Part shown: positions 2,269-62,575 of the stretch, piece by piece
Layout: each line of letters opens with the position of its first letter
How positions within the stretch are numbered: the stretch's first letter is position 1
Assembly (NCBI RefSeq): GCF_003095655.1
Contig: NZ_CP029151.1
Location: 1,921,001 to 1,985,000 of the forward strand
Direction: 5' to 3'
DNA length: 64,000 nt
DNA from: Dokdonia sp. Dokd-P16
GTDB taxonomy: Bacteria > Bacteroidota > Bacteroidia > Flavobacteriales > Flavobacteriaceae
Notes under the pieces: model-generated
Told to the model about the DNA's origin: nothing
The model's input: the letters and a program-made list of their open reading frames with translations, nothing else
The model's database searches: none
Made by a program: the position numbers and the translations under genes

Positions 2269-2284
2269 CGCTTTCGCGAAAGCG
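2269..2284. repeat. 16-bp palindromic repeat, exact copy 1
   Basis: Exact CGCTTTCGCGAAAGCG, intergenic, 38 bp upstream of the ATG of the lipoprotein gene at 2323. Confidence 0.95.
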
Positions 2285-2322
2285 TGATAATGATTACTTT
2301 GGTCACATCAAAACACTTAAAT

Positions 2323-2817
2323 ATGAAGTATATAGGATTAGTATTATTAGTTCTAACATTGAGTTGTTCTAGTGACGACAATCAAAATGAGTTATCTGTA
2401 AAGGGAGAAACGTATATTGCGGTATCTTATAAAGTTGAAAGCGCCATAGATATAAATGGTGATGGAATTGCTTCCATTGAATTATTTGATGAGTCAGATC
2501 GCAGCATGTTAGGGCAAGGTGTATATTTTAGAGAAGACAACAAAGTATATCCACCTAATCCATTAATTGTATGTATTGATGCAACTGAAGATGGTGATGT
2601 AGTAAATTATTGTGCGGTAATCGCAGATTACAATCCTCTTCCTACTTACACACAGAATAAAAATGCTGTTACTATTGATAATGGCATGGAAGGTGAAGTT
2701 TCTGCAGATTTTGAAACGATAGTATTTAAAGAAGTATTTTATAAATCTAGAAATAACAATGATGGAACGACTACTAGAGAACAAGAGGTAGCTATGGTAA
2801 CCTATCAGAAGCAATAA
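2323..2817 (+). CDS. Lipoprotein, tandem paralogue A
   Basis: This encodes 164 aa with a lipoprotein signal (MKYIGLVLLVLTLSCSSDD; lipobox Cys 15), so it is a predicted membrane-anchored periplasmic or surface protein. The mature part has a short acidic loop (DINGDGIAS) resembling a calcium-binding loop, and two Cys (IVCIDA, NYCAVI) that could form a disulfide. The next gene shares the same plan: SVKG, D-x-N-x-DG, YPPNP/IPPYP, TVTIDxxxxGxxSAD. I chose the ATG at 2323 because the upstream in-frame start would translate the palindromic repeat and would place the signal peptide internally. I do not recognise the family and assign no function. Confidence 0.85.
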   Translation: MKYIGLVLLVLTLSCSSDDNQNELSVKGETYIAVSYKVESAIDINGDGIASIELFDESDRSMLGQGVYFREDNKVYPPNPLIVCIDATEDGDVVNYCAVIADYNPLPTYTQNKNAVTIDNGMEGEVSADFETIVFKEVFYKSRNNNDGTTTREQEVAMVTYQKQ

Positions 2818-2840
2818 TATTAAGCTATCATTAATAATCT

Positions 2841-2882
2841 AAAGTCAGGTATTCAAGTAGTGGATATCTGGCTTTTTTTTTT
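2841..2882 (+). terminator. Rho-independent terminator
   Basis: AAAGTCAGGTATTC pairs, with G-U wobbles, with GGATATCTGGCTTT and is followed by a run of T. It lies 24 bp after the first lipoprotein gene, so the two paralogues are probably separate transcripts. Confidence 0.75.
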
Positions 2883-2991
2883 GTGACGGTCATAAGGTAT
2901 ACTAACAGATTTAAGCAAAATGTTAATTTTTTTCTATTTACTTAATAATCTAACTGTAGAACGCTCTATATTTGAAATCGTAAAATTAAAT

Positions 2992-3495
2992 ATGAAACGT
3001 ACTATTATTTTTTGTCTTGTATTTTTATGTCTATCCAGTTGTTCTGACGATGAGACAAAGAAGAAGGAAAGCGTCAAAGGCAGTTTATATAAGCAGATAT
3101 CTTATGTCGTTACGGTACCATTAGATTTAAATAATGATGGTATTTTTTCTACTAACTTATTGGAAGAAAACGGAGCAGTTTTGAGTCCGCAACAGATTAA
3201 TTTTAGTTTAGATAATACGGTGATACCACCTTATCCCATTACTACATGTGTAGATGATGATGGTAATGGTCATCTAAACGAATTTATATGCTTAGTGGTA
3301 GTAAACTACGTAAACCCTCCATCATATGTTCAGACTGGAAATACGGTGACAATTGATGATGAAATTATAGGCACATTATCTGCAGATAGGGATACATTGA
3401 GATTTGAAGAAACACTCACGAGAGATTTATTAAATAATGCTCCTTCGGGAGGTTTTGATGATACAATGGCAATATCTACATATGTGAGAGAGTAA
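2992..3495 (+). CDS. Lipoprotein, tandem paralogue B
   Basis: This encodes 167 aa with a lipoprotein signal (MKRTIIFCLVFLCLSSCSDDE; lipobox Cys 17). It is paralogous to the gene immediately upstream: both carry SVKG, a D-x-N-x-DGI loop (here DLNNDGIFS), a proline-rich centre, paired Cys (TTCVDD, FICLVV) and a TVTIDD-x-x-x-GxLSAD segment. The ATG at 2992 places the signal peptide at the N-terminus; an earlier in-frame start at 2920 would add an improbable leader. Sequence divergence is high, so the duplication is old. Function is unknown; the acidic loop suggests, but does not show, calcium binding. Confidence 0.85.
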   Translation: MKRTIIFCLVFLCLSSCSDDETKKKESVKGSLYKQISYVVTVPLDLNNDGIFSTNLLEENGAVLSPQQINFSLDNTVIPPYPITTCVDDDGNGHLNEFICLVVVNYVNPPSYVQTGNTVTIDDEIIGTLSADRDTLRFEETLTRDLLNNAPSGGFDDTMAISTYVRE

Positions 3496-3524
3496 CTTAT
3501 AGAATGTAAAACAGTAAACATAAG

Positions 3525-7273: not shown

Positions 7274-7292
7274 GTGAAGTTGTTTTGAATTA

Positions 7293-7308
7293 CGCTTTCG
7301 CGAAAGCG
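7293..7308. repeat. 16-bp palindromic repeat, exact copy 2
   Basis: Exact CGCTTTCGCGAAAGCG, 19 bp upstream of the preferred polA GTG, within the probable leader. Confidence 0.95.
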
Positions 7309-7385
7309 TATGACGGCTAAAACTCAAATGTAAGAAGATGTACTTAGATATAGCAGCGGTGTTGATAAATAGTGCCGCCAAACAT

Positions 7386-7608
7386 ATGACCTAAGCAAGT
7401 TTTACGTAAAAAATGAAGTAAGTGAAGGGTTGGAGCAAACTAGCGACAGCCTCATAATTATTGATTTATTGCCATATTTCGAAGTTAGCAGAATATGACT
7501 AATTCTTCAATGGCTTTTAGTTTGCGCCGCAACGAGGGGAATTTTTAATAAAGTTCGATTAAGTCTAGACTTTTTTGGTTCGTTTTTTTGTCAATGAAAA
7601 AAATGAAC
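7386..7608. repeat. Non-coding direct repeat, copy 1 (223 bp)
   Basis: About 90% identical by eye to 7717-7938. Both begin ATGACCTAAGC, contain the palindrome TTTTACGTAAAA and end AATGAAC. Internal inverted arms GCAAACTA/TAGTTTGC enclose a smaller TTAG/CTAA arm pair, and the distal end folds as GTTC-n-T7 against A7-n-GAAC. No credible ORF on either strand. Differences cluster in one 25-bp stretch while the arms are kept. Confidence 0.85.
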
Positions 7609-7716: not shown

Positions 7717-7938
7717 ATGACCTAAGCGAATTTTACGTAAAAAATGATGTAAGTGAAGGGTTAAGCAAACTAGCGACAGCCTTACAATTAGTATTTATTA
7801 TTCATATTTCGAAGTTAGCAGAATATGACTAATTCTTCAGTAGCTTTTAGTTTGCGCCGCAACGAGGGAGATTTTTAGTAAAGTTCGGTTAAGTCTAGAC
7901 TTTTTTGGTTCGTTTTTTTGTCAATGAAAAAAATGAAC
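7717..7938. repeat. Non-coding direct repeat, copy 2 (222 bp)
   Basis: Second copy of the 7386-7608 element, same orientation, 108 bp further on. The terminal hairpin and the inverted arms GCAAACTA/TAGTTTGC are conserved. The 7609-7716 spacer is unrelated AT-rich sequence. This looks like a duplicated dispersed intergenic element rather than a gene. Confidence 0.85.
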
Positions 7939-7939
7939 G

Positions 7940-8407: not shown

Positions 8408-9436
8408 CTAGCTATTTTTTGTGTCGTAAAAAGAAGATGAAATATTTTCATTTTTTTTATTTTGATACTTCATCATTGTAAATCCTTTATGAATACAATG
8501 ACTTCCAGTCTCACCAGATTTATTCATAGCGATGTAGGCGATTTGGAAATCCTTATAACGAGCTCCCTTCTTTGTAATTCTATGGATTGCTTCCTCACAA
8601 GCAGCTTGTGGTGACATTCCAGAACGCATTAACTCTACAATTAAAAAACTGCCAACTGTCTTGAGTACTTCTTCTCCCATGCCTGTGGCTACAGCACCAC
8701 CTACTTCATTATCTATAAAAAGTCCAGATCCTATAATGGGAGAATCTCCTACGCGTCCTTTCATTTTATAACCTAAGCCAGAGGTAGTACAAGCACCTGC
8801 AATATCACCATTGTTATCTATAGCAAGCATCCCGATGGTATCGTGATTCTCTATGTTAATTTCAGGTTTGTAATCACTTGTTTTTAACCACTCTTTCCAA
8901 GCTTCTTTGCGTTCTTCTGTGAGAAGTTTTTGTTTAGTAAATCCCTGCTCATAAGCAAATTCTTCGGCGCCTTTTCCTGCTAAGATGACGTGTGGCGTTT
9001 CCTCCATAACCTTACGTGCTAGAGCTGCCACATTTACTATATTTTCAACAGCAAGAACGGCTCCGCAATCTCCTTCTGGATTCATCACGCAGGCATCTAG
9101 CGTTACATTGCCCTCTCTGTCTGGAGTGGCTCCTATTCCTACGGTGGTATTTTCTATATTTTCTTCTTCTACAGCGACACCTGCTATAATTGCATCGAGT
9201 GCAGAGCTGCCGCCATCTAGGAGTTCGCCAGCTTTTGCTGTAGCTCCAGAAAATCCCCATGTACAAATGGCAATGGGAGATGGTTTTTTGATATTTTCTT
9301 TTTGCGCTTTCGCGAAAGCGTTATTATCCACATCACCAGTGCTTGTGCTTAGGTTATTGCATGCCATCAAACTTGCGCCTGTAGCAATCCCAGCTCCCGC
9401 AACTGCAGATTTATTTATAAATTTTCTTCTGTTCAT
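8408..9436 (-). CDS. N4-(beta-N-acetylglucosaminyl)-L-asparaginase (glycosylasparaginase)
   Basis: This encodes 342 aa, an Ntn-hydrolase that cleaves the GlcNAc-Asn bond of N-glycopeptides. The autocleavage and catalytic Thr200 is visible in NHDTIGMLAID, with downstream motifs SGLGYKMKGRVGDSPIIGSG and GAVATGMGEE. The N-terminus has a twin-arginine start (MNRRKF) and a lipobox-like LMAC26, so it is probably Tat-exported and lipidated. The palindromic repeat is embedded at residues 40-44 (AFAKA), in the linker after the lipobox. It is last in an operon with a sulfurtransferase (24 bp gap) and a GH92 mannosidase, which points to N-glycan breakdown. Confidence 0.92.
   Translation of the reverse strand: MNRRKFINKSAVAGAGIATGASLMACNNLSTSTGDVDNNAFAKAQKENIKKPSPIAICTWGFSGATAKAGELLDGGSSALDAIIAGVAVEEENIENTTVGIGATPDREGNVTLDACVMNPEGDCGAVLAVENIVNVAALARKVMEETPHVILAGKGAEEFAYEQGFTKQKLLTEERKEAWKEWLKTSDYKPEINIENHDTIGMLAIDNNGDIAGACTTSGLGYKMKGRVGDSPIIGSGLFIDNEVGGAVATGMGEEVLKTVGSFLIVELMRSGMSPQAACEEAIHRITKKGARYKDFQIAYIAMNKSGETGSHCIHKGFTMMKYQNKKNENISSSFYDTKNS
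9305..9320. repeat. 16-bp palindromic repeat, exact copy 3 (coding)
   Basis: Exact copy inside the glycosylasparaginase gene, read as Ala-Phe-Ala-Lys-Ala in the flexible linker after the lipobox. Confidence 0.95.
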
Positions 9437-10271: not shown

Positions 10272-13214
10272 TTACTGCACTACAATCTCGTCTACAAATA
10301 CCCAACTTTTTCCTTGATAAGGAAAACCTAAATGCCACTCTGGAAGATCTCCTAGTGTCTTTGCAATAAGCTTTATGTATTGAGCTTGTGTGCCTTGTTG
10401 TTTCCCTTTAATACTTTTAATAGCAATGTCCTCATCGCGAGAAGCAGCATCAATTTGCTCTTGGTGATAGATTTCAAAATTTTCACCGTCCGTAGAAGTT
10501 AGTAATGTTACTTCTGTAGGGTAGAAAATCCAACTGCGCTGATCTTGTAAAAATGCAGTTTCAATACTAGTGATGGTTTGTGCTTTGCCTAAGTCTAGCG
10601 TAGCTACTACATCTTGAGCATCATAGCCCTGCCATGTACCTGAGCGGAATTCTTTTACACCTCTCACACCGTCTATCAATGCATTATCTCCACCAGCATT
10701 ATATGCATTTGCATAGATAGCGTCTAGTGTAAGAGAGTAGTTTTCATTTAGTTTAAATAATGGTGTTTCTATAGTAGCACTTTGCCCATGGCGACCCTTT
10801 GCGTAGGTGCGTAAAGTGTTGTGATCTTTAATTTTAATAGGCAGTCTGTATTTTTTAAAGTTATTGCCGTCTTCTTCTAGAGCGTAGAAAACATCCACAT
10901 TTTTATCTGTAGTAGCGAGTGTAATCTCTGTCGCTTTTTTAAAGTTGGCTTCTCCTTGTGCTATTAATGGAGCTGCTGTAAATTTATTATCCTCAATACT
11001 TGTTTTAGGACTGTGAGCGGGGTGTTTTGCCCATCGGGAATGAGTAGCTGCCATATTAAATATGAGTTCGCCGCCATCCATAATATCTTCGTGTTTCAAG
11101 TATGAATATGGGTAAGCCTTATCATCCATATAAGCACTTTCTATGTGTATGTTTTCTTCAGAAAGATTTTGTGCAACAATGGTAAAACTATTACCATTTT
11201 CTAAATGTATGGTAGCCTTATCAAATAATGGTGTGCCAATAGCATATTCATTACTTCCTGGGGTTACTGGATAAAAGCCTAAGGAGCTTAGTACGTACCA
11301 AGCGCTCATCTGCCCGCAATCTTCATTGCCAGAAATTCCGTCTGGAGAGTTGGTGTATAATGTGGTAAGGATTTGATGGACTCGCTTTTGAGTTTTCCAA
11401 GGCTTCTGGATGTAGTTGTATAAATATGCCATGTGGTGGCTAGGTTCATTGCCATGTGCATATTGCCCTATCAATCCTGTGATATCTTGCTGGTGACGAC
11501 CAGAAGTTGCAGTCTCGGCCGTAAATAGTGTGTCTAGCTTTCTTTCAAAAGCCTTGTTTCCTCCAGATAAGTTAATAAGACCACTTATGTCTTGAGGTGC
11601 ATAGAGGCTATATTGCCAAGCGTTTGCTTCGGTATAATTGAAATTTACTTCAAACGGATCAAAAGGGGAGAACCATGTATTTCTCATGCGACCTCGCATA
11701 AAACCAGAAGAAGGATCATACACGTTTTTATAAGACTGGGCGCGCTTTGTAAATTCTTGATAGATTTCATCATTGCCCATTTCTTGAGCCATTTGAGCGA
11801 TGGTCCAGTCGTCATAAGCATATTCTAGTGTCTTTGATACAGACTCTGCTTCGTCATTTGCAGGTATAAAACCGTATTTCTTGTAAGATGCAAGGCCAAG
11901 TTTGTCTTGTGAGGCACTATGAAGCATTGCTTCAAAAGCCTTATCTACATCATAATCACGTATTCCTTTCATATAAGCATCTGCGATTACGGGTACTGCA
12001 TGATAACCTATCATACAGCCTGTATAGTTGCCAGCTAGATCCCAAATAGGCATAATGCCACCTTCCTCATATTTGGCAAGAAATGTGTTTATAAAATCAT
12101 TAGTACGCTCTTCTTCTATAATCGTATATAATGGATGCGCTGCGCGATACGTATCCCACAGTGAGAATACCGTATAATAGTCAAAAGCATCTGTTTGATG
12201 AATTTCTAGATCCATCCCTCGGTAGCGACCATCCACATCTTGATAAAGATTAGGCGCGAGCATGGTGTGGTACAGCGAAGTGTAAAAATTAGTTTTGTAA
12301 TCTGAGTTTTCACTTTCTACAACAATTTTTTCCAGCTGACGCTCCCAAGTGGATTGTGCTTCTTGCTTTACTTGGTCAAAGGTTTTGTTTCCTATTTCGG
12401 TTTCTAGGTTCTTTCGCGCCCCAGCTTCATCTACGGCAGATATTCCGATTTTTATGATGATTTCTTCATTCTTGGGATTGTCAAACTGCAATGCAGCTTT
12501 ATGTGATGTCGCTCCGTTCTTAGTCCTTCTTGGTTGTTTTAGATATTTGAAAGTATGCGATGTTTTGATATAATAAAACAACTTTTGGTTGCTAGCCCAA
12601 GCCTTGGAATGTCTGTGTCCAGAGAGTTCTGTGCTAGAGAGTGTGTCTATTTTAGTACTTAGTACCTCATCACGATGTTCAAGATCTAAAATCACAAAGT
12701 TTTTTAAAGAGTCCGCTTTCGCGAAAGCGTACTTATGCACACCGCTACGAGCAGCAACAGTAAGTGCGACGTCTATGTTTGAGTTGTCTAGATGTACACT
12801 ATAATATCCCGGTTGTGCTACTTCATTATCATGCGTAAAATGATCCCGATACCCAGGTTTTCCATCTGCACCATTATTAAACATTATGGAAGTAGAAGGC
12901 ATCAAGAGGATATCTCCATAGTCTGAAACTCCCGTCCCACTTAAATGTGTGTGGCTGAAGCCATAGATAAACTCATCATCATAATGATACCCAGAACAAC
13001 CGTCCCAGCCATCAAGGCGTGTGTCTGGACTAAGTTGCATCATTCCAAAAGGCATGGTCGCCCCAGGGTAGGTGTGACCGTGACCGCCTGTACCTATAAA
13101 AGGATTTACATAGCCTATGAGGTCTTGGTCTTTTTGAGCGGGAGTAACCTCTGTAATATGCTCGCAACTAGTGATAATAAGTAGGAGAAGAAAAAGAGAG
13201 AGTAGGTAACGCAT
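10272..13214 (-). CDS. GH92 alpha-mannosidase lipoprotein with C-terminal F5/8-type domain
   Basis: This encodes 980 aa, a calcium-dependent exo-alpha-mannosidase family. A lipoprotein signal (LLLLIITSCEH, Cys17) starts the protein. The GH92 signature follows: NPFIGTGGHGHTYPGATMPF, CSGYHYDD and GFSHTHLSGTG. The catalytic-domain motif GNEDCGQMSAWYVLSSLGF is present. Residues from about 850 (DNALIDGVRG, YDAQDVVATLDLG, QDQRSW) form a discoidin-like carbohydrate-binding domain. The palindromic repeat encodes AFAKA near residues 162-167. It is first in the operon with a sulfurtransferase and glycosylasparaginase, so mannose trimming of N-glycans is the likely role. It is anchored on the periplasmic or surface side. 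Confidence 0.93.
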   Translation of the reverse strand: MRYLLSLFLLLLIITSCEHITEVTPAQKDQDLIGYVNPFIGTGGHGHTYPGATMPFGMMQLSPDTRLDGWDGCSGYHYDDEFIYGFSHTHLSGTGVSDYGDILLMPSTSIMFNNGADGKPGYRDHFTHDNEVAQPGYYSVHLDNSNIDVALTVAARSGVHKYAFAKADSLKNFVILDLEHRDEVLSTKIDTLSSTELSGHRHSKAWASNQKLFYYIKTSHTFKYLKQPRRTKNGATSHKAALQFDNPKNEEIIIKIGISAVDEAGARKNLETEIGNKTFDQVKQEAQSTWERQLEKIVVESENSDYKTNFYTSLYHTMLAPNLYQDVDGRYRGMDLEIHQTDAFDYYTVFSLWDTYRAAHPLYTIIEEERTNDFINTFLAKYEEGGIMPIWDLAGNYTGCMIGYHAVPVIADAYMKGIRDYDVDKAFEAMLHSASQDKLGLASYKKYGFIPANDEAESVSKTLEYAYDDWTIAQMAQEMGNDEIYQEFTKRAQSYKNVYDPSSGFMRGRMRNTWFSPFDPFEVNFNYTEANAWQYSLYAPQDISGLINLSGGNKAFERKLDTLFTAETATSGRHQQDITGLIGQYAHGNEPSHHMAYLYNYIQKPWKTQKRVHQILTTLYTNSPDGISGNEDCGQMSAWYVLSSLGFYPVTPGSNEYAIGTPLFDKATIHLENGNSFTIVAQNLSEENIHIESAYMDDKAYPYSYLKHEDIMDGGELIFNMAATHSRWAKHPAHSPKTSIEDNKFTAAPLIAQGEANFKKATEITLATTDKNVDVFYALEEDGNNFKKYRLPIKIKDHNTLRTYAKGRHGQSATIETPLFKLNENYSLTLDAIYANAYNAGGDNALIDGVRGVKEFRSGTWQGYDAQDVVATLDLGKAQTITSIETAFLQDQRSWIFYPTEVTLLTSTDGENFEIYHQEQIDAASRDEDIAIKSIKGKQQGTQAQYIKLIAKTLGDLPEWHLGFPYQGKSWVFVDEIVVQ
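12714..12729. repeat. 16-bp palindromic repeat, exact copy 4 (coding)
   Basis: Exact copy inside the GH92 gene, read as Ala-Phe-Ala-Lys-Ala between predicted beta strands. Confidence 0.95.
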
Positions 13215-13314: not shown

Positions 13315-14031
13315 ATGAAATTAGAAATCTGTGCAAACTCGTTTGAAAGTGCTCTGGATGCTCAAGATGCAGGAGCACATCGTATTGAACTTTGTCAAGA
13401 GCTGTCACTTGGAGGTATTACTCCTAGTCATGGTTTGATAGAGAAAGTGATGCAAGAACTAGAGATTCCTGTGTTTGTACTCATAAGGCCAAGATCTGGA
13501 GATTTTATGTACTCGGAAGCAGAGTTTGATGTGATGTTGCGGGATATTGCTTTCGCGAAAGCGCAAGGTGCTCAAGGAATAGTTTCTGGAATATTAAACA
13601 TAGATTTTACAATTGACGCAGACAGGACTAAACAATTAATCGTGGAATGTGGCGAACTACCTTTCACCTTTCATCGTGCTTTTGATTGGACGCCTGATGT
13701 TCTTGCTGCCTTAGAGCTGCTCATAGATATGGGAGCTCAGAGGATTTTAACTTCTGGAATGAATGTTAATGTGAATGAAGGTTATGAAACCTTGGTGCAA
13801 TTGCTAGCTGCGGCTAGAAATCGTATAGGTATTTTACCTGGCGGAGGAATTTCTGTTGATAATATTATGAAATTTAAGAACGCAGGTTTTAGCGAAGTGC
13901 ATGGTAGTTTGAGTAGTAGTGCGTTTGGATATAATCATGCTATAAAAATGCATTCGCTAGCAGGTCATGAAAATAACTTACTTCAAACCTCTGATGTTTT
14001 TAAAATAAAGGCACTCTTAAATATGCTATAA
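13315..14031 (+). CDS. cutC: CutC family protein
   Basis: This encodes 238 aa, full length for the TIM-barrel CutC family. Visible motifs are LEICANSFESALDAQDAGAHRIELCQEL, the strand PVFVLIRPRSGDF, FHRAFDW, RILTSGMN and GILPGGGI. The family was named for copper homeostasis, but its biochemical role is unsettled. It is divergent from the GH92 operon with a 100-bp spacer and convergent with lepA. An imperfect copy of the palindromic repeat encodes AFAKA at residues 79-83, in the helix of the third beta-alpha unit. Confidence 0.9.
   Translation: MKLEICANSFESALDAQDAGAHRIELCQELSLGGITPSHGLIEKVMQELEIPVFVLIRPRSGDFMYSEAEFDVMLRDIAFAKAQGAQGIVSGILNIDFTIDADRTKQLIVECGELPFTFHRAFDWTPDVLAALELLIDMGAQRILTSGMNVNVNEGYETLVQLLAAARNRIGILPGGGISVDNIMKFKNAGFSEVHGSLSSSAFGYNHAIKMHSLAGHENNLLQTSDVFKIKALLNML
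13549..13563. repeat. Palindromic repeat, 15/16 copy (coding)
   Basis: GCTTTCGCGAAAGCG preceded by T instead of C. It lies inside cutC and is read as Ala-Phe-Ala-Lys-Ala. Confidence 0.85.
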
Positions 14032-18573: not shown

Positions 18574-18589
18574 CGCTTTCGCGAAAGCG
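18574..18589. repeat. 16-bp palindromic repeat, exact copy 5
   Basis: Exact copy 71 bp upstream of dusB. It sits 9 bp after a TACCTTTG -7-like box (18557-18564), so it would lie at the very start of the transcript if that promoter is real. Confidence 0.95.
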
Positions 18590-21335: not shown

Positions 21336-21350
21336 CGCTTTCGCGAAAGC
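21336..21350. repeat. Palindromic repeat, 15/16 copy
   Basis: CGCTTTCGCGAAAGC followed by T instead of G. Intergenic, 58 bp upstream of the epimerase ATG. Confidence 0.88.
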
Positions 21351-21408
21351 TAAACTTGCCTACACGATACTATTAGTATGAAACAACATATCATAAATTA
21401 AATAAACT

Positions 21409-23067: not shown

Positions 23068-24150
23068 ATGAATAAAGATCAAAAAGTACGTGTAGGGATT
23101 TCTATTGGAGATTTAAATGGAATAGGGGCAGAGGTTGTGATAAAGACATTTTCAGAAGTGATGATGTTTGATTTTTGTACGCCTATAATTTTTGCTTCGG
23201 CAAAGACACTTTCTTATATTAAGAAGTCTTTGAGTTTACAAGCAGAGTTTCATGGTATAGACGCTTTCGCGAAAGCGTTAGATAACAAAATAAACGTCTA
23301 TAATTTATGGAAGGAGCCTGTAGAGATTAAATGGGGAGAGGCGACTGAAACAGCAGGCGATTATGCTTTAAAGTCTTTTGTGGAAGCTACTAAGGCGCTT
23401 AAAAATGGAGATATTGATGTACTTGTAACCGCTCCTATAAATAAGGCTAATATCCAGAAAGAAGATTTTGCATTCCCGGGTCATACAGATTATCTAGCAC
23501 AAGAGCTAGAGGGCGATGCGATGATGCTTATGATTACAGATACGCTTAAGGTAGGTTTGCTAACAGATCACGTTCCTGTAAAAGATGTGGCTAGTGAGAT
23601 TACACCAGAGGTGATTGTTAAGAAAGTAAATACATTATATAATGCCTTGAAGCAAGATTTTGGCGTAGATAGGCCTAAAATTGCTTTACTGGGCATTAAT
23701 CCTCATGTAGGAGACAACGGAGTTATAGGAGATGATGATGATAAGGTATTGATACCTACGCTTGAAAAAATGCGTGCAAATGGTCAGTTAGTTTACGGGC
23801 CTTATGCTGCAGATAGCTTTTTTGGGTCAGGGAATTATAAAAATTTTGATGCAATTCTAGCTGCTTATCACGACCAAGGGTTAATTCCTTTTAAGACATT
23901 ATCTTTTGGTAAGGGTGTTAATTATACTGCGGGATTAGATAAAATACGCACATCCCCAGATCATGGTACGGCATATGAGATTGCAGGTAAGGGAGTGGCA
24001 GACGAGGGTTCTTTTAGGGAAGCTGTTTTTTCGGCAGTAAAGATTTATAATAAAAGAAAAGAATACCAAGAGATTACAAAGGATGTACTTAAGGTTTCTC
24101 CTAGACGTGCTGGTAGAGAGCGATCGGGAAGACCGCCAGCAAAAAGATAA
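23068..24150 (+). CDS. pdxA: 4-hydroxythreonine-4-phosphate dehydrogenase
   Basis: This encodes 360 aa. PdxA motifs are complete: GISIGDLNGIGAEVVIK, TAPINKANIQ, FPGHTDYLA, the metal ligands in LLTDHVPVKDV, AAYHDQGLIPFKTL and TSPDHGTAYEIAGKG. It oxidises 4-phosphohydroxythreonine in pyridoxal phosphate synthesis. The palindromic repeat supplies the AFAKA of residues about 65-70 (GIDAFAKALDN). The C-terminus ends in an unusually basic tail (SPRRAGRERSGRPPAKR) beyond the normal domain end. Confidence 0.96.
   Translation: MNKDQKVRVGISIGDLNGIGAEVVIKTFSEVMMFDFCTPIIFASAKTLSYIKKSLSLQAEFHGIDAFAKALDNKINVYNLWKEPVEIKWGEATETAGDYALKSFVEATKALKNGDIDVLVTAPINKANIQKEDFAFPGHTDYLAQELEGDAMMLMITDTLKVGLLTDHVPVKDVASEITPEVIVKKVNTLYNALKQDFGVDRPKIALLGINPHVGDNGVIGDDDDKVLIPTLEKMRANGQLVYGPYAADSFFGSGNYKNFDAILAAYHDQGLIPFKTLSFGKGVNYTAGLDKIRTSPDHGTAYEIAGKGVADEGSFREAVFSAVKIYNKRKEYQEITKDVLKVSPRRAGRERSGRPPAKR
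23262..23277. repeat. 16-bp palindromic repeat, exact copy 6 (coding)
   Basis: Exact copy inside pdxA, read as Ala-Phe-Ala-Lys-Ala in a surface helix. Confidence 0.95.
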
Positions 24151-26726: not shown

Positions 26727-26742
26727 CGCTTTCGCGAAAGCG
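26727..26742. repeat. 16-bp palindromic repeat, exact copy 7
   Basis: Exact copy in the accB-accC spacer, 46 bp before the accC ATG. It is in the middle of a presumed operon, so it need not be a promoter element. Confidence 0.95.
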
Positions 26743-28707: not shown

Positions 28708-28723
28708 CGCTTTCGCGAAAGCG
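28708..28723. repeat. 16-bp palindromic repeat, exact copy 8
   Basis: Exact copy between the divergent DinB and LpxR-like genes, 33 bp from one start and 82 bp from the other. Confidence 0.95.
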
Positions 28724-32077: not shown

Positions 32078-32089
32078 GAAATATCACAT

Positions 32090-32103
32090 TTTCGCGAAAG
32101 CGT
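32090..32103. repeat. Palindromic repeat, degenerate copy
   Basis: TTTTCGCGAAAGCG: one half-site is intact and the other has lost its CGC end. It lies between the stop and the terminator of the Fe-S protein gene, 10 bp from the stop. Confidence 0.75.
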
Positions 32104-35174: not shown

Positions 35175-35187
35175 CGCTTTCGCGAAA
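35175..35187. repeat. Palindromic repeat, degenerate copy
   Basis: CGCTTTCGCGAAA then AAA; the last GCG is lost. Upstream of the FAD oxidoreductase gene and 16 bp from another degenerate copy. Confidence 0.7.
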
Positions 35188-35203
35188 AAATCTTTTTGTT
35201 ACC

Positions 35204-35216
35204 CTTTCGCGAAAGC
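35204..35216. repeat. Palindromic repeat, degenerate copy
   Basis: CTTTCGCGAAAGC lacking the outer bases on both sides. It and the copy at 35175 form the only closely paired copies in the window. Confidence 0.7.
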
Positions 35217-35467
35217 AAAATATATAGTAGTCTAAACAAGTATTTTAAAACTTGTTTCTATGAGATAACATATCCTTGGGTCGTTTTAAAGATAGTAAAC
35301 TTAATGTGATGCTGTCTATTTAGAATTTATCTAAATGAAAAAGTGCTGTAAGGAAATTATAGTCTTGATTATGGAGCGTACTGAACTGGTTATTTTAAAT
35401 TTTTAATGATCTGGCTGTAAGTCTCTCTATTTGAGCTCGACCCATTGTGCAGAAAAAAAGTTTACTT

Positions 35468-37483: not shown

Positions 37484-38494
37484 ATGAAAAAGATTATAGG
37501 GTGCCTCTTTTTATTGATTTGTCTACAAGCGTGTACTGCTCAAAAAGCGCAAGAACAAAAAATAAATGGCGTAAGTTTTGTTGCAAATCGTAATCCGGTA
37601 GATAGCACTCATGTAAGCCCTGTACAACTTGTAAATGCAAACTATGCTGCGGTAATGCCGTTTGGGTTTGTGCCACAAAAAGATAAACCACAAATCATAT
37701 ACAATACAGACAGGCAGTGGTATGGAGAGACCAGAGAAGGAGGTCGCAACTATGTGTCAGAATTGCACAAAGCAGGTATTGAGGTGATGGTAAAACCACA
37801 GATATGGATGCGCAATGGCGAGTTTACTGGGTACCTTAAAATGGAAACAGAGTCAGAGTGGACAGCGCTTGAAGATTCATACCGCAACTTTATAATTGAT
37901 TATGCCACACTATCGCAAGAAGAAGGAGCAACCATTTTTTGCATAGGTACAGAGTTAGAACAATTTGTAACAAACAGACCAGATTTTTGGACGCAACTTA
38001 TTATTGATATAAGAAAGGTGTACAATGGTAAACTTACGTATGCTGCAAACTGGGATGAGTATAAGACAACTCCATTTTGGAGCCAACTAGACTACATAGG
38101 GATTGATGCTTATTTTCCTGTTTGTGATGATCAAACGCCATCTGTGGAGTGTGTTACCGCAGGATGGCAACGATGGAAGGAGGAGATGTCCGCTTTCGCG
38201 AAAGCGGAAAACCGCAAAGTGATTTTTACAGAATTTGGGTACCGCTCTGTAGATTATACAGGTAAAGAGCCGTGGAAGGCAGATAGATCTATGACCACCG
38301 TAAATCTTGAGGGACAGGCACAAGCTACGCAAGCTCTCTTTGATACAATATGGGATGAAGAGTGGATGGCAGGAGGATTTATCTGGAAGTGGTTTATAAA
38401 ACATGATGAGGTAGGAGGTCCAGAAAACAACCAATTTACACCACAAAACAAACCAGCCGAAGCTGTAATAAGACAGCATTATGGTAAATATTAA
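37484..38494 (+). CDS. GH113-like beta-mannanase lipoprotein
   Basis: This encodes 336 aa. It is a lipoprotein (MKKIIGCLFLLICLQAC; Cys 17) with a TIM-barrel. Clan GH-A features are present: acid/base Glu in FCIGTELEQF (about residue 157) and nucleophile Glu in VIFTEFGYRS (about residue 250). It also has DYIGIDAYFPV and GGFIWKWF. This matches GH113 beta-1,4-mannanase-like proteins. The palindromic repeat encodes AFAKA at about residues 236-241, in the helix just before the nucleophile strand. Surface attachment and the GH92 operon elsewhere suggest use of mannose-containing glycans. Confidence 0.78.
   Translation: MKKIIGCLFLLICLQACTAQKAQEQKINGVSFVANRNPVDSTHVSPVQLVNANYAAVMPFGFVPQKDKPQIIYNTDRQWYGETREGGRNYVSELHKAGIEVMVKPQIWMRNGEFTGYLKMETESEWTALEDSYRNFIIDYATLSQEEGATIFCIGTELEQFVTNRPDFWTQLIIDIRKVYNGKLTYAANWDEYKTTPFWSQLDYIGIDAYFPVCDDQTPSVECVTAGWQRWKEEMSAFAKAENRKVIFTEFGYRSVDYTGKEPWKADRSMTTVNLEGQAQATQALFDTIWDEEWMAGGFIWKWFIKHDEVGGPENNQFTPQNKPAEAVIRQHYGKY
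38191..38206. repeat. 16-bp palindromic repeat, exact copy 9 (coding)
   Basis: Exact copy inside the GH113-like gene, read as Ala-Phe-Ala-Lys-Ala ten residues before the predicted nucleophile strand. Confidence 0.95.
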
Positions 38495-43857: not shown

Positions 43858-43873
43858 CGCTTTCGCGAAAGCG
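43858..43873. repeat. 16-bp palindromic repeat, exact copy 10
   Basis: Exact copy in the spacer between the Pmp3-like gene and the PagL-like gene, 106 bp before the next ATG. Confidence 0.95.
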
Positions 43874-48327: not shown

Positions 48328-48342
48328 CGCTTTCGCGAAAGC
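48328..48342. repeat. Palindromic repeat, 15/16 copy
   Basis: CGCTTTCGCGAAAGC then A instead of G, in the spacer between the two DUF547 genes of the island. Confidence 0.88.
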
Positions 48343-48392
48343 AAAATCAATACCCATTAACGCGCAGTTAAGTGAGTTTTGTGAAAACATTA

Positions 48393-49308: not shown

Positions 49309-49324
49309 CGCTTTCGCGAAAGCG
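49309..49324. repeat. 16-bp palindromic repeat, exact copy 11
   Basis: Exact copy 22 bp upstream of the DUF547 ATG, in the space after the sterol-desaturase-like gene. Confidence 0.95.
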
Positions 49325-51382: not shown

Positions 51383-51398
51383 CGCTTTCGCGAAAGCG
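51383..51398. repeat. 16-bp palindromic repeat, exact copy 12
   Basis: Exact copy between arsM and the PNP stop (51403), 4 bp from that stop. Confidence 0.95.
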
Positions 51399-53221: not shown

Positions 53222-53716
53222 CTAGTAAACTTTATTTCCTGTTTTTAAATACTTTCCCCATACTTTGGAAAATACGTGAACAGAGTCGGTTGGTTGGTTG
53301 TTTTTGTTTTGAATTTCGTAGCCTTCATCTTTCCAAGCAAATATGCTTCCGTATAGATTTTTGACATTTGTAAATCCTTTCTTCTTCAGTCGCTCGCCAA
53401 AATCTTCAGAGCGTATCCCTACGGAGCAATAAACGACGATGGGTTGATCTTTTTTTGCTTTCGCGAAAGCGTACATACTATCATTCACCTTCTCAGAAAC
53501 CCACACCGCTCCAGGGATATGACTCACATCAAACTCTTCTTTTTTACGAGTGTCTAAAATTAAATAGTCACTCATTTCCATCTTGAGTTCTTGCACAGAA
53601 ATATAAGGAACAGAGCGCGTGTTGTACTGTTTTAAGAGCACATCCATATCCGACTGTCCAAATGAAACTGCCGAAACCAATAGAAGTAATATGTAAGCGA
53701 TATTCTTAGTGTTCAC
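53222..53716 (-). CDS. Secreted single-domain rhodanese
   Basis: This encodes 164 aa. Signal peptide MNTKNIAYILLLLVSAVSFGQ, then one rhodanese domain with LILDTRKKEEFDVSHIPGAVWV and the catalytic Cys in VVYCSVGIRSEDFGERL. It is predicted periplasmic. An imperfect palindromic repeat encodes AFAKA at residues about 82-87. It is tightly packed: 3 bp after the metallophosphoesterase-like gene and directly before two small membrane genes. A periplasmic sulfur carrier in an arsenic island could serve thioarsenical or thiol chemistry; this is speculation. Confidence 0.88.
   Translation of the reverse strand: MNTKNIAYILLLLVSAVSFGQSDMDVLLKQYNTRSVPYISVQELKMEMSDYLILDTRKKEEFDVSHIPGAVWVSEKVNDSMYAFAKAKKDQPIVVYCSVGIRSEDFGERLKKKGFTNVKNLYGSIFAWKDEGYEIQNKNNQPTDSVHVFSKVWGKYLKTGNKVY
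53457..53471. repeat. Palindromic repeat, 15/16 copy (coding)
   Basis: GCTTTCGCGAAAGCG preceded by T, inside the rhodanese gene and read as Ala-Phe-Ala-Lys-Ala. Confidence 0.85.
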
Positions 53717-57447: not shown

Positions 57448-57463
57448 CGCTTTCGCGAAAGCG
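57448..57463. repeat. 16-bp palindromic repeat, exact copy 13
   Basis: Exact copy in the 34-bp spacer between SusC and SusD genes; it abuts the SusC stop codon and lies 18 bp before the SusD ATG. Confidence 0.95.
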
Positions 57464-60400: not shown

Positions 60401-60679
60401 TTCTAGTGAGATATCGATTGTTGTTTGCGAATTAACTGCAACTGACTGTGTGGTAAACCCTAAAGCAGAAAACTTCAGTCTGTCGTTTAGTGAGGTTGTT
60501 GTGATGGTGTAAAAACCATTTTCGTCTGTAATAGTTCCTTGAGTTGTGCCCTCTAGAATAACGTTTACAAATGGTATTGTAGTGTTATCTTCAGCGCTTG
60601 TAACAGTTCCGGTAACGGTAGTTTGAGCATACAAACTTGCTGTAAAAAGCAAGAGTATACTAAGATAAAATGATTTCAT
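57464..60679 (-). CDS. SusC/RagA-family TonB-linked outer-membrane protein
   Basis: This encodes 1071 aa. Signal peptide MKSFYLSILLLFTASLYAQ, then a CarboxypepD_reg-like domain (TVTGTVTSAEDNTTIPFVNV). The SusC plug follows (ALGVKRNTRELGYTVQTINS, VDGVPINNNT, VLKGPSAAALYGTRASNGVI), then a long barrel ending in YATTRSFGFKAGFNF. It is the channel partner of the SusD lipoprotein. Such pairs import glycans or other compounds; inside this island the substrate is unknown. 66 bp separates it from the second TIGR04282-type gene. Confidence 0.95.
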   Translation of the reverse strand: MKSFYLSILLLFTASLYAQTTVTGTVTSAEDNTTIPFVNVILEGTTQGTITDENGFYTITTTSLNDRLKFSALGFTTQSVAVNSQTTIDISLENSFEGLNEIVVTALGVKRNTRELGYTVQTINSEAIDEVKSVNFLDNLSGKLAGVTITQGATGVGSSSRISIRGEASFSNNNPLFVVDGVPINNNTVFNFTNEAAAGFQEVDFGNGAMEVNPDDIASVSVLKGPSAAALYGTRASNGVIVIETKDGSKKKGLGISINSSIFFDSAFQLPDFQNEYGQGQGGVFEYVDGLGAGISDNITYSWGPRLDAGNLISQFDSPVTLPDGTIVRGGDTALYNGLAITPTEFRSNPDNLKDFYETGVTTINNVSVSSGFDQGDFRISFTDLRSESIIPGVNLDRQTIATKLNFKPTDKTKIKASISYVNSGSDNRPSNGYGSENVNYSLVAWGPRSLNIDSLRDYWQPGLEGVQQYSFNYTFFDNPFFILEENRNSFNRDRVFGNIALTQTLAKNLDLTIRTGMDYSSEKRQFLRNFSSNRFQNGGYAEHDVFYREINTDFLLNYDNKFGDFSLDVSLGGNRLSQVASTKQVQTTNLAQPGIFNLNNAASPIEAFQFESEKRINSFYGVAKLGYKNFLYLDVTGRNDWSSALATPFSADNTSFFYPSASLSFIGSNVWELPEAVSYLQLRASVAQVGNDTNPFQTSGAFIAQTPFEGQPTFSAQNFIPNANLKPEQTTSYEIGTDIRFFKDRFNVDFTYYNALTKDQIISLPIAISSGFNQQVVNGGEVRTSGIEVIAGITPIVNENFTWNTTFNFSTNKSVVESLPQSDGRLTLAFSRIYDSANQTVFFQVEEGGEVGDIYGTGYLRNDDGDFIIDNNGRFIADNNLKKIGNYTADFNLGWNNDFRYKQWSASFLFDWRQGGDIVSRTRALGNVGGQLAETAFRPEEGIIAQGVVNTGTAANPNFVPNTTAVSAESYYRQFYDRNHEENNIYDASFLKLRQFSIGYSFKLKDGFIGLKEGVDVNLSLIGRNLFAITENPHFDPEQLAVQGQGFVSGVEDLSYATTRSFGFKAGFNF

Positions 60680-60745
60680 CTGAGTGTATTAGTTGATAAT
60701 TAAGAAAATCTAAGAATAACTGTAAGCTGTTGTAGCTTACAAGAT

Positions 60746-61435
60746 TTAAATACTAACTAATGATGGTGACCCTTTATTAAAGTGGCTTTTGGTGAGCGAC
60801 TCAAAGAATCGGTTTGTAGTGTGGTAATCAAGAGAAATACCTTGATTTACTATGTTTTGTATAAGTTGTAATACTCTTTTTGATAATGTCGAAGAAGCCT
60901 CTTTAAGCATCTGCTGTAAATCTGCAAATGTGTCAAGATCTGAAAGGGTCTCAAGGAGGTAAAGGTTTGTACGCTTTCGCGAAAGCGTATCAGAAATAAT
61001 AGCGCCAAGTTTACTAGACTGCCACGGTAGATTTTTAAACTGCTCCGGCTTAAAATGGTTCTTTTTAATCCCCATTAGATAACAACCGCCATCTGTACTT
61101 GGGCCAATAACAAGCGCAGATTGTTTGAGCTTTTCTTGTGCTAAAAGAATATGCCCCGCCGAAAGGTGCGGAGTGTCATTACCGATGGTTATAACTTGGT
61201 CATAACCACTGTCAAAAACAGCTGTAAGTGCGTTTGTAAAACGCTCGCCAAAGGTGTTTCCTACCTGCTCATTTTCAGAAAAAATAACATAGGGAATTCC
61301 CGTCTTGCGTACCGTAGCGATAGTTTGCCTATTGAGCTCCTTAAATAAAGCCACAGACTGCCCGAGCTTCTTGCGAGAAGCTTCGGTTGTTGCTGTTTGA
61401 GCAAATATGAGTATGGCGGTTTTTGGTGTCGTGAT
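60746..61435 (-). CDS. TIGR04282-like (DUF2064) glycosyltransferase-like protein, copy 2, unclear start
   Basis: This encodes about 229 aa. The C-terminal plan (VGNTFGERFTNAL, VITIGNDTPHLSAGH, LVIGPSTDGGCYLMG) matches its paralogue at the other end of the island. The family N-terminal strand is present in frame upstream (PKTAILIFAQTATTEASRKK), preceded by a TAG, but no ATG, GTG or TTG exists before it. Translation must start at a rare codon (ATC at 61435 is the best placed), or the start codon has been lost; a GTG at 61354 would delete the nucleotide-binding strand. The palindromic repeat encodes TLSRKR near residue 150. ArsS ends 10 bp upstream. Confidence 0.7.
   Translation of the reverse strand: MTTPKTAILIFAQTATTEASRKKLGQSVALFKELNRQTIATVRKTGIPYVIFSENEQVGNTFGERFTNALTAVFDSGYDQVITIGNDTPHLSAGHILLAQEKLKQSALVIGPSTDGGCYLMGIKKNHFKPEQFKNLPWQSSKLGAIISDTLSRKRTNLYLLETLSDLDTFADLQQMLKEASSTLSKRVLQLIQNIVNQGISLDYHTTNRFFESLTKSHFNKGSPSLVSI
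60972..60987. repeat. 16-bp palindromic repeat, exact copy 14 (coding)
   Basis: Exact copy inside the DUF2064 gene, read as Leu-Ser-Arg-Lys-Arg, the only coding copy not read as AFAKA. Confidence 0.95.
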
Positions 61436-61445
61436 TCTCTACGTA

Positions 61446-62501
61446 TTAAGCAACGGTTCCTTGACAACTACTTCCTGCACCTGCAGTACAACCATAACAA
61501 TGCTGAGAGATCATAATGTTACGATCATTAAGTAAATCTTCATTATAATCTTTTATGTGCTTTACACTACTCGCGACTGGCAATTCTAGCATTTGATTAA
61601 AATCACAATCAAATAAATAACCATCCCAGCTTATTGAAATTGTGTTTTTACACATCACATTCTCTACTGCGGCAGGGTTATATGCCTCTACGAGTTGATA
61701 CATATAATCCTCATAGTTTTCTGATGCGATGAGGTAGTCTAAAAATCGTGCTATAGGTAAGTTTGTGATTGCAAAAAGGTTGTGGAACTGGATATTAAAA
61801 TCCTCCATAAGTCCTTTTTTAAAGTCCTTTTCCATACTCGCTTGGTCTCCCGGTAAGAAAGCTCCAGATGGATTGTAAACTAAGTCAAGTCTTAAGTCAC
61901 TGCCTGGCATACCATAGCCACGCTCGTTAAGCTCTTGTAATGCTTTGATAGATTTATCAAAAACACCGTCTCCACGTTGTTTGTCTGTCTTTCCACGTGT
62001 CCAGTGTGGCATAGATGAGATGACGTGTACGTTGTGCTTTTTAAAGAAATCTGGTAGGTCGTAGTACTTTTTATTTGCACGTATAATAGTAAGGTTAGAA
62101 CGCACAATAAAGTCTTTAATCCCCGCCTTACTCGCTTCTTCTACAAAACGTCTAAAATGCGGATTCATCTCTGGTGCACCACCAGTAAGATCTAGCGTGT
62201 GAGCTCCTGTGTTGCGTATCACTTCTAGACATTGCTCCATAGTCTCCCAAGTCATAATCTCCTTGCGATCTGGGCCAGCATCTACGTGGCAGTGATCACA
62301 CACTTGATTACACATATACCCCACGTTTATTTGGAGTATTTCTAGTTTGTTAGGGCGTAACGGTAGCTGGTTGGTCTCCTTTATTTTCTTAGCAAACGTA
62401 GGTAGTTCGTCTTTAAAAATACCATTAGATAAAATTTCTATCTGCTTGTTTGCTTGTGCGAGTTCGCTACCTTCTTTCTTGAGTGATTTTGTTGCTGACA
62501 T
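61446..62501 (-). CDS. arsS: Arsenosugar biosynthesis radical SAM protein
   Basis: This encodes 351 aa. The radical-SAM cluster motif is C64-x3-C68-x2-C71 (YMCNQVCDHCHVDAG), with LDLTGGAPEMNPHFRRF as the second SAM strand. A C-terminal DUF3641-type Cys cluster follows (ISQHCYGCTAGAGSSCQG). ArsS transfers a 5'-deoxyadenosyl group to dimethylarsenite to make 5'-deoxy-5'-dimethylarsinoyl-adenosine, the core arsenosugar precursor. It precedes the second TIGR04282-like gene by 10 bp. Confidence 0.93.
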   Translation of the reverse strand: MSATKSLKKEGSELAQANKQIEILSNGIFKDELPTFAKKIKETNQLPLRPNKLEILQINVGYMCNQVCDHCHVDAGPDRKEIMTWETMEQCLEVIRNTGAHTLDLTGGAPEMNPHFRRFVEEASKAGIKDFIVRSNLTIIRANKKYYDLPDFFKKHNVHVISSMPHWTRGKTDKQRGDGVFDKSIKALQELNERGYGMPGSDLRLDLVYNPSGAFLPGDQASMEKDFKKGLMEDFNIQFHNLFAITNLPIARFLDYLIASENYEDYMYQLVEAYNPAAVENVMCKNTISISWDGYLFDCDFNQMLELPVASSVKHIKDYNEDLLNDRNIMISQHCYGCTAGAGSSCQGTVA

Positions 62502-62559
62502 TTAAAAATGTTTGTCGTTTGTAGTGTTGATTTCTTTTGGTTGGAAATCTGTATGAGTA

Positions 62560-62575
62560 CGCTTTCGCGAAAGCG
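62560..62575. repeat. 16-bp palindromic repeat, exact copy 15
   Basis: Exact copy between the AhpD-like gene and arsS, 58 bp before the arsS ATG and 5 bp after the stop at 62581. Confidence 0.95.

What the first reader, a model, noticed from the sequence alone, without database searches (positions are those of the whole stretch)
2269..62575. Highly iterated 16-bp perfect palindrome CGCTTTCGCGAAAGCG
I count 15 exact copies (starting at 2269, 7293, 9305, 12714, 18574, 23262, 26727, 28708, 38191, 43858, 49309, 51383, 57448, 60972, 62560) and about 7 near copies. Chance would give about 64000/4^16, roughly 1.5e-5 exact copies at equal base frequencies. Many extend to TACGCTTTCGCGAAAGCGTA. Copies lie in leaders, between operon genes, directly at stop codons and inside genes. 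It resembles iterated palindromes such as cyanobacterial HIP1 in abundance, but is twice as long. Candidate roles: a chromosome-organising or segregation protein site, an uptake or methylation signal, or a self-spreading short palindrome. I know of no described function.
Basis: seen in the sequence. Interest (0 to 1): 0.85.

Follow-up and report, generated by a model that had tools for sequence, protein, structure and literature searches.

The report
Genome-wide palindrome with G-poor arms
A marine flavobacterium and its relatives carry one exact 14-16-letter palindrome many hundreds of times, evenly spaced, strongly conserved and flanked by stretches that avoid G, which points to an undescribed DNA-handling site used across the whole chromosome.

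Summary
The window holds 15 exact 16-mers (chance about 3e-6); the 3.62-Mb genome holds 556, and 808 copies of the inner 14-mer GCTTTCGCGAAAGC. The 18 genomes searched in the genus have 369-905 14-mers. Two other genera and the named strain BBFL7 have 408-664; other Flavobacteriaceae and class members searched have 0-13.

It is a selected DNA site, not an RNA hairpin, with no sign of current mobility. Third codon positions inside it differ in 0 of 242 and 3 of 238 cases between species, against 22% and 35% for controls. Spacing is more even than random, with no obvious origin-terminus trend. Strain-specific DNA is nearly free of sites. How sites arise is unresolved.

New: both flanks (about 16-20 nt) avoid G on the outward strand (about 7%, background 18-19%), in genes and between genes; third-codon-position data favour selection. 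The functional unit is therefore a symmetric site of about 50 bp.

Most likely it binds an unidentified symmetric factor serving bulk chromosome maintenance. Uptake-signal and Chi-like roles remain open. Factor and function are not shown. I found no description in the library searched.

The parts
2269..2284 (.). exact 16-mer, upstream of ORF 2290-2817 (+)
7293..7308 (.). exact 16-mer just upstream of the part of the polA ORF (-) that matches the family (true start uncertain); same in both sister genomes
9305..9320 (.). exact 16-mer inside ORF 8408-9436 (-), AFAKA frame
12714..12729 (.). exact 16-mer inside GH92-family ORF 10272-13214 (-), AFAKA frame
13548..13563 (.). one-mismatch copy inside ORF 13315-14031 (+; CutC-like, below the NCBIfam cut-off), AFAKA frame
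18574..18589 (.). exact 16-mer between ORFs; one substitution in G303
21336..21351 (.). one-mismatch copy between divergent ORFs
23262..23277 (.). exact 16-mer inside ORF 23068-24150 (+), AFAKA frame
26727..26742 (.). exact 16-mer between ORFs
28708..28723 (.). exact 16-mer between divergent ORFs
32087..32102 (.). two-mismatch copy between ORFs
35175..35190 (.). three-mismatch copy with intact core, 27 bp from the next; pair kept in both sister genomes
35202..35217 (.). two-mismatch copy, second of the pair
38191..38206 (.). exact 16-mer inside ORF 37484-38494 (+), AFAKA frame
43858..43873 (.). exact 16-mer between divergent ORFs
48328..48343 (.). one-mismatch copy between ORFs
49309..49324 (.). 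exact 16-mer between ORFs; one substitution in G303
51383..51398 (.). exact 16-mer between ORFs
53456..53471 (.). one-mismatch copy inside ORF 53222-53647 (-), AFAKA frame
57448..57463 (.). exact 16-mer in the 34-bp gap between the 3' end of the SusC-like ORF 57464-60679 (-) and ORF 55990-57429 (-)
60972..60987 (.). exact 16-mer inside ORF 60746-61075 (-), LSRK frame
62560..62575 (.). exact 16-mer between ORFs
7275..7326 (.). example of the whole proposed unit: 14-mer 7294-7307 plus about 19 nt on each side, C-poor to the left and G-poor to the right on the + strand; the same architecture is inferred around every copy
   Evidence: arm statistics; 3 outward G in 32 arm bases at this site

Best explanation
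Shown: a symmetric DNA element, an almost all-or-none 14-bp palindrome (weaker C/G at its ends, then TA in this genus) with an arm of about 16-20 nt on each side that avoids G on the strand read outward. The copies are kept by constraint on the DNA itself, about one every 3-5 kb, irrespective of gene orientation. Inferred: a symmetric (probably homodimeric) DNA-binding protein reads the core while a further part of the complex tracks the arms in a strand-aware way, in the duplex groove or on locally opened strands. One complex every few kb serves a bulk chromosome function, most likely nucleoid organisation or DNA maintenance. Neither the protein nor the function is shown. I would put about 0.9 on 'selected, composite, DNA-level site' and about 0.4 on 'chromosome organisation or maintenance' as its purpose.
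For: Counts: 556 16-mers and 808 14-mers in G000; the 18 genomes searched in the genus, own included, have 369-905 14-mers. DNA-level selection: exact copies perfectly conserved 65 of 76 (control 42%) and 64 of 77 (control 22%) in two sister genomes; third codon positions inside the 14-mer differ 0 of 242 and 3 of 238 (G/C-ending controls 22%, 35%). All-or-none: folded one-mismatch counts over three genomes are 72 at the outermost pair and 0-3 at each inner pair, with no compensatory double changes at inner pairs. Arms: G about 7% against 18-19%, in genes and between genes, on both sides whatever the gene strand; genome-wide 652 of 1616 arms have no G in 14 nt against 51 of 1616 with no C, and the same direction in 18 of 18 genomes; A/G exchange at third codon positions in arms is about 0.4 of control (p 1e-5 and 9e-4); 39 other TCGCGA hexamers and 246 other palindromes have no such arms. 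Weaker cores have G-richer arms (p 0.008), and so do the 12 sites lost in one sister genome (no test made). Even spacing of cores: CV 0.57-0.73 against 1.03 (0 of 1000 randomisations) in three related genomes that share most sites, and independently in G300, G242 and G190. Density 0.5-5.5 cores per 10 kb in 41 stretches, no obvious origin-terminus trend.
Against: No binding protein was identified; no protein whose presence follows the site was systematically sought. Even spacing, intergenic preference and scarcity in strain-specific DNA (1 core in 29.6 kb against 123 in 390 kb) are shared with uptake signals. With exact 16-mers alone the spacing is much less even (CV 0.90 and 0.92 over the first 100 in G300 and G000), although close pairs are still rare. 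Absence of G from one strand over about 15 bases is not a classical protein-DNA contact pattern. In arms, A/T exchange at third codon positions is also reduced (0.53-0.69), so the constraint there is not on G alone, and in intergenic arms A/G exchange is near control (0.84-1.01) while A/C is raised (1.46-2.42). The lepA tree does not unite the three palindrome-bearing groups (3 changes needed, 0% of bootstrap trees with one; well-supported branches force only 1). G190 shows weak arms.
Confidence: 0.45

Rival explanations
1. DNA-uptake (self-recognition) signal: a surface receptor of a competent cell prefers DNA with this site, and biased uptake plus recombination keeps sites exact and spread.
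For: Same statistical fingerprint as Haemophilus/Neisseria uptake sequences: hundreds of exact copies, sharp drop at one mismatch (82-92-fold in overrepresentation there), even spacing, partly inside ORFs with intergenic excess, no orientation bias (passages of PMC1939737; here). Depleted in strain-specific DNA. Flank dialect differs between genera (GCGTAA against GCG[AG][AG]A).
Against: The known signals are not palindromes (PMC1939737); a symmetric site of about 50 bp would be unlike any I know. I recall no report of transformation in these genera (not searched). Sites also sit in related uncultured phage contigs at one per 6-10 kb, near the host's 16-mer density, which uptake bias alone does not predict.
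Confidence: 0.25
2. Bidirectional Chi-like recombination signal: the palindrome is read by an AddAB-type repair nuclease from either side and RecA loads on the strand next to it.
For: On the strand whose 3' side is the palindrome, the arm is T/G-rich and C-poor, the composition that RecA is reported to prefer (recalled). G000 has two PF12705 (AddB-type nuclease) matches about 5 kb apart, read by me as an AddAB pair. Even spacing and concentration in shared DNA fit. Uncultured siphophage-like contigs carry the site, while two isolated Nonlabens phages, both annotated with ERF- and YqaJ-type recombination genes, have none in the sequence examined (35.7 kb, and 30 of 35.65 kb).
Against: Known Chi sites are 5-8 nt, asymmetric and orientation-biased (recalled). 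PF12705 matches occur in 11 of 11 genomes searched, 7 with and 4 without the palindrome (a second adjacent match in 6 of 7 and 2 of 4), so the enzyme does not follow the site.
Confidence: 0.12
3. HIP-like site made and kept by a DNA methyltransferase coupled to biased mismatch repair, as proposed for cyanobacterial HIP1.
For: Palindromic, iterated, deviations concentrated at the outermost bases as reported for HIP1 (PMC4390886; here).
Against: A 14-bp core is much longer than a usual methyltransferase target (recalled); single-mismatch inner variants are almost absent here whereas one-off HIP1 variants are common; the model does not predict G-poor arms.
Confidence: 0.1
4. RNA-level element (terminator, rut site or mRNA hairpin).
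For: The transcript could form a 6-bp hairpin with a C-rich, G-poor 3' arm (read from the sequence, not folded).
Against: No compensatory changes at inner pairs; A rather than T follows the palindrome; density per intergenic bp is similar for convergent, divergent and codirectional gaps; about half of the cores lie inside ORF calls; both arms are biased alike whatever the gene strand.
Confidence: 0.04
5. Mobile or self-spreading short repeat (REP/MITE-like).
For: High copy number; inner intermediates are rare, so the way sites are gained is unexplained; in two or three cases a gap or an unalignable stretch covers the site in G303 (at R0 62892; at R0 114235 and 207465).
Against: Positions are conserved (102 of 117 cores comparable in all three genomes); 14 of the 16 non-conserved cases printed from G000 run through the core without a gap, as do 5 of 11 against the more distant G300 (the other 6 have gaps nearby and are unclear); even spacing; the low-count genomes examined carry genes that contain the site rather than dispersed lone copies.
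Confidence: 0.04
6. By-product of base composition or codon use.
For: 48 of 76 genic cores encode the same peptide AFAKA.
Against: Model expectation 1e-5 against 88; pattern read backwards 0; all three frames are used.
Confidence: 0.005

Closest known systems
HIP1 (GCGATCGC), cyanobacteria (PMC4390886: passages and one section read)
   Same: Exact palindrome, highly iterated, extensions keep the symmetry, deviations fall mostly on the outermost bases, function unsettled.
   Different: Unrelated sequence, 14-16 bp instead of 8, almost no inner one-off variants, long G-poor arms, in Flavobacteriaceae; link to methyltransferases untested here.
DNA uptake sequences of Haemophilus and Neisseria (PMC1939737: passages read)
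   Same: Copy number class, sharp one-mismatch drop, even spacing, intergenic excess but many in ORFs, no orientation bias; dialects between genera (recalled).
   Different: Those are about 9-12 nt (recalled) and not palindromic; uptake is not shown here.
Chi sites (GCTGGTGG and others, recalled)
   Same: Widely spread oligomer; here the adjacent strand is T/G-rich as RecA is said to prefer.
   Different: Chi is short, asymmetric and orientation-biased; this site is symmetric and about twice as long.
matS, Noc and SlmA binding sites (recalled)
   Same: Palindromic sites of chromosome-organising proteins.
   Different: Tens of degenerate copies confined to or excluded from one chromosome region; here about 800 exact 14-mers, found in each of 41 stretches sampled.
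REP/BIME palindromes (recalled)
   Same: Hundreds of dispersed palindromes.
   Different: Those are mainly intergenic, longer and mobile; here about half are genic and positions are conserved between species.

Membership tests
HIP1-type iterated palindrome | sequence GCGATCGC | tested here: not met
   unrelated 16-mer
HIP1-type iterated palindrome | hundreds or more of exact palindromic copies over the whole genome | tested here: met
HIP1-type iterated palindrome | one-off variants common | tested here: not met
   0-3 per inner pair over three genomes; 72 at the outer pair only
HIP1-type iterated palindrome | associated orphan methyltransferases acting inside the site | not testable with these tools
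   no methylome; methyltransferase genes not surveyed
DNA uptake sequence | strong overrepresentation with sharp fall at one mismatch | tested here: met
DNA uptake sequence | even spacing | tested here: met
   cores and 14-mers; exact 16-mers alone are much less even (CV 0.90-0.92)
DNA uptake sequence | non-palindromic signal | tested here: not met
   perfect palindrome with symmetric arms
DNA uptake sequence | preferential uptake by competent cells | not testable with these tools
   needs an uptake assay
Chi site | short asymmetric, orientation-biased oligomer | tested here: not met
   symmetric 14-mer
Chi site | host has a RecBCD/AddAB-type enzyme | tested here: inconclusive
   two adjacent PF12705 matches in G000, read as AddAB by me; also found in palindrome-free relatives
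REP/MITE | arises by insertion | tested here: inconclusive
   most differences are substitutions, but 2-3 gapped cases exist and gains were not observed
REP/MITE | cognate REP-associated transposase | not tested
   not searched
intrinsic terminator | U-tract 3' of hairpin, at gene ends | tested here: not met
   A-rich 3' arm; many genic sites; no preference for convergent gaps
matS/Noc/SlmA-type regional site | restricted to or excluded from one chromosome region | tested here: not met
   cores in each of 41 stretches spread over G000

The most novel reading that the evidence does not exclude
A class of chromosome site not yet described: a symmetric element of about 50 bp (rigid 14-bp palindrome plus two strand-asymmetric, G-poor but otherwise fairly free arms) read by a dedicated protein about once per few kb. 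Whatever acts there opens or tracks single strands outward on both sides (for example a loading platform for a recombinase, a topoisomerase or a loop-forming complex). It marks long-resident, self DNA in several Flavobacteriaceae genera and some of their phages.
Probability: 0.35. Interest if true: 0.93.

Novelty: new variant of a known kind. Interest (0 to 1): 0.82.

Why it matters
Highly iterated oligomers are either explained (Chi, uptake signals) or a long-standing riddle (HIP1). This is an exact palindrome under almost complete constraint at third codon positions, at hundreds of chromosomal positions, with a clear flank rule that I have not found described. Organisms I take to be Dokdonia (recalled identity) are cultured and sequenced (recalled), so a pull-down, ChIP-seq, methylome and uptake assay would be direct. 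It also marks the source of DNA: metal-efflux genes carrying the site occur in Flavobacteriaceae that otherwise lack it.

Tried and rejected
Composition or codon artefact: rejected. RNA hairpin or terminator: rejected by the lack of compensatory changes, the A-rich 3' arms and indifference to gene orientation. Current transposition: not supported. One search found 38 non-conserved rows; I printed the 16 seen from G000: 14 run through the core without a gap, 1 has a 32-bp gap over the site in G303 (R0 207465) and 1 is poorly alignable (R0 114235). (first 45 of 137 cores printed) shows one more gap in G303 (R0 62892). Against G300, 5 of 11 non-conserved cases are gap-free and 6 unclear. The odds of the mobile rival were raised from 0.02 to 0.04 for this on checking. 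Regional chromosome site: rejected. Arms as extended dyad symmetry: no left-right matching beyond column composition. Arms as a pure mutation bias: A/C differences first looked raised in arms; with matched controls A/G and G/T exchanges are reduced at third codon positions (0.42-0.43 and 0-0.35) while C/T is near control (0.79-0.95), which favours selection; A/T is reduced too (0.53-0.69), and intergenic arms give a weaker, partly contrary picture. Other iterated palindromes in named relatives: in the loci of at least 15 kb among 80, no GC-containing palindrome stood out (one 12-mer three times in L035), AT-rich runs and N runs aside. AddAB as a discriminator: uninformative. A lepA tree to show a single origin: unresolved and, as it stands, against one origin. 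Phage records: two isolated Nonlabens phages have no site; whether their host carries it was not confirmed.

Literature: the 16-, 14- and 12-mer occur in no held paper. A search with the 10-mer lists ten papers whose titles and abstract openings concern other matters; none was opened. Searches on palindromes with Nonlabens, Dokdonia, Flavobacteri-, uptake or Chi terms listed nothing on this motif (listings only). The library lacks most subscription journals.


Full report
Observation. The 15 exact copies are at the stated places, and 7 near copies share the core TTTCGCGAAA. Expected exact copies in the window are about 3e-6. The window lies at 1,921,001-1,985,000 of a 3,623,447-bp single-contig genome that holds 556 copies of the 16-mer, and none of the pattern read backwards. 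The inner 14-mer GCTTTCGCGAAAGC occurs 808 times. In a 464-kb stretch, 114 of all 168 14-bp palindromes are this one.

Who has it. The window is from a flavobacterium: polA, lepA, SusC/RagA and other families, with lepA relatives in Flavobacteriaceae. The 18 genomes searched in the genus, the own one included, have 138-711 16-mers and 369-905 14-mers; some are incomplete. Copy number does not simply rise with genome size: 899 in a 3.3-Mb and 903 in a 5.5-Mb genome. Two contig lengths (3,293,944 and 3,389,993) are those I recall for Dokdonia donghaensis and Dokdonia (Krokinobacter) sp. 4H-3-7-5; this identity is recall, not a tool result. Of 299 family genomes searched (own included), 38 have the 16-mer and only five are high: two of this genus, two of a second (495, 579) and one of a third (153); the other 33 have 1-13. 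Of 32 genomes searched by handle, 30 were reached through named lepA loci; among these only Flavobacteria bacterium BBFL7 is high (551 14-mers) and the other 29 have 0-3, while the two comparison genomes G242 and G190 have 664 and 408. Across the class, 13 of 247 genomes have the 14-mer, at most 4 copies apart from the own genome; the reversed control has single hits in 5 of them. The lepA tree places the three groups apart, with weak deep support, so one origin is not shown.

It is selected DNA. I aligned 464 kb of this genome with 400 kb each of two syntenic sister genomes (93% and 88% identity). Of 137 cores, 117 can be compared in all three genomes and 102 are present in all. Exact 16-mers are perfectly conserved in 65 of 76 and 64 of 77 alignable cases, against 42% and 22% of GC-matched 16-mers. 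Inside the 14-mer, third codon positions differ in 0 of 242, 3 of 238 and 3 of 228 cases in the three pairwise comparisons, against 22%, 35% and 34% for G/C-ending third positions elsewhere. Most differences between species are substitutions through the core; two or three gapped cases are unclear, and the way sites are gained was not seen. One-mismatch copies over the three genomes: 72 at the outermost pair, and 3, 2, 0, 1, 1, 3, 0 at the seven inner pairs. Among double changes, none is a compensatory inner pair. This is a sequence read as DNA, not a hairpin kept as RNA.

Where it sits. 61 of 137 cores lie in the roughly 9% of DNA outside my ORF calls (p 4e-27), at similar density per bp in convergent, divergent and codirectional gaps. 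The 76 genic cores use all three frames: AFAKA 48, LSRK 15, RFRES 13. ORFs were called mechanically, so some start sites are wrong. Core spacing is much more even than random: CV 0.73, 0.64 and 0.57 against about 1.03, with 0 of 1000 randomisations as low in each. These three genomes share most sites and are not independent, but the same holds in a more distant congener and both other genera (CV 0.68, 0.46, 0.68). Exact 16-mers alone are less even (CV 0.90 and 0.92), though pairs under 1 kb are few (2 and 0, against about 19 and 12 expected). Density is 0.5-5.5 cores per 10 kb in 41 stretches spread over the chromosome. DNA that aligns to neither of the fetched sister stretches has 1 core in 29.6 kb, against 123 in 390 kb (p 0.001); it might align elsewhere in those genomes.

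The arms. Reading outward from the 14-mer on either side, G falls from 18-19% to about 7% over +5 to +16, is 12% at +17 to +20, and returns gradually to 15-16% by +26 to +40, while A and C rise. This holds in genes and between genes, and on both sides whatever the gene strand. It holds in the second genus with another inner dialect, weakly in the third, and around 24 distinct sites in low-GC viral contigs (G 8%) but not around 11 in higher-GC ones (28%) (groups sorted by hand). Genome-wide, 652 of 1616 arms have no G in 14 consecutive bases and 51 of 1616 have no C; all 18 genomes of the genus show the same direction. Other TCGCGA hexamers (39) and other GC-containing palindromes (246) lack it. 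At third codon positions in arms, A/G differences are 0.42 and 0.43 of control (19 of 585 and 12 of 577) and G/T 0-0.35, while C/T is near control (0.79-0.95): this favours selection against G over a mutation bias. Against a G-only rule, A/T is reduced too (0.53-0.69); and in intergenic arms A/G is 0.84-1.01 of control and A/C raised, so the evidence there is weaker. Cores that lack the full 14-mer have G-richer arms (3.35 against 2.30 per 32 nt, p 0.008), and so do the 12 sites lost in one sister genome (3.75 against 2.43 for 107 conserved, untested).

Phages and transferred genes. 41 stretches of viral contigs hold the 16-mer. In two low-GC contigs examined, genes include portal, major head and tape-measure proteins (L131, L114), and their sites have G-poor arms. 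Five low-GC contigs, several sharing flanks and so related, have one site per 6-10 kb. Two isolated Nonlabens phages have none in the sequence examined. In 15 of the 33 low-count family members I read 32 sites; 31 are inside ORFs. Eight of these ORFs were searched and 7 matched: an AcrB-type pump, two outer-membrane efflux proteins, a CusB-like adaptor, a heavy-metal P-type ATPase, a Fur-like regulator and a DUF4138 protein; the peptides around the sites recur between genomes by eye. These read as genes imported from a palindrome-rich donor (inference).

Mechanism and rank. Shown: a symmetric, composite, selected DNA site used about once per few kb. Inferred: a dedicated symmetric DNA-binding factor and a chromosome-wide function, with organisation or maintenance first, uptake signal second, Chi-like recombination site third and methylation-coupled HIP-like site fourth. 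The G-poor strands suggest either a groove-tracking arm or exposure of single strands beside the core. The experiments listed would separate these.

Known or new. It resembles HIP1 in kind (PMC4390886, passages) and uptake sequences in statistics (PMC1939737, passages) but fails at least one defining feature of each. I found no description of this motif.

Noticed in passing
window 7386-7608 and 7717-7938: Two copies (92% identical, about 224 bp) of a non-coding repeat between polA and an asparaginase-like gene; seven matches of 200-245 bp in congener G206, short matches in a Bizionia locus (L026). No Rfam family at the curated cut-off; weakly more folded than shuffles (z -1.5 and -2.4).
   Followed up: partly
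window 8086-8234: Intergenic stretch of the same gap conserved to G300 (87%) and partly to G190 (81%, another genus); possible small RNA or leader.
   Followed up: no
L081-L100: Palindromes in 15 low-count Flavobacteriaceae sit recurrently in metal-efflux genes and, in two genomes by peptide, a DUF4138-like gene, so the palindrome works as a marker of DNA from a palindrome-rich donor.
   Followed up: partly
L242 and L243 (phages P12024S, P12024L): Neither Nonlabens phage has a TCGCGA, the central hexamer of the site, in the sequence examined (expected about 2.6 and 2.2); suggestive only.
   Followed up: partly
L148-L149, G000 about 1,780,000-1,795,000: Arrays of repeats with periods of about 711 and 1050 bp (seen as shifted alignments), with few palindromes; perhaps a large repeat protein (guess).
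   Followed up: no
window 35175-35217: Two palindrome cores only 27 bp apart, kept in both sister genomes although pairs under 1 kb are otherwise rare.
   Followed up: no
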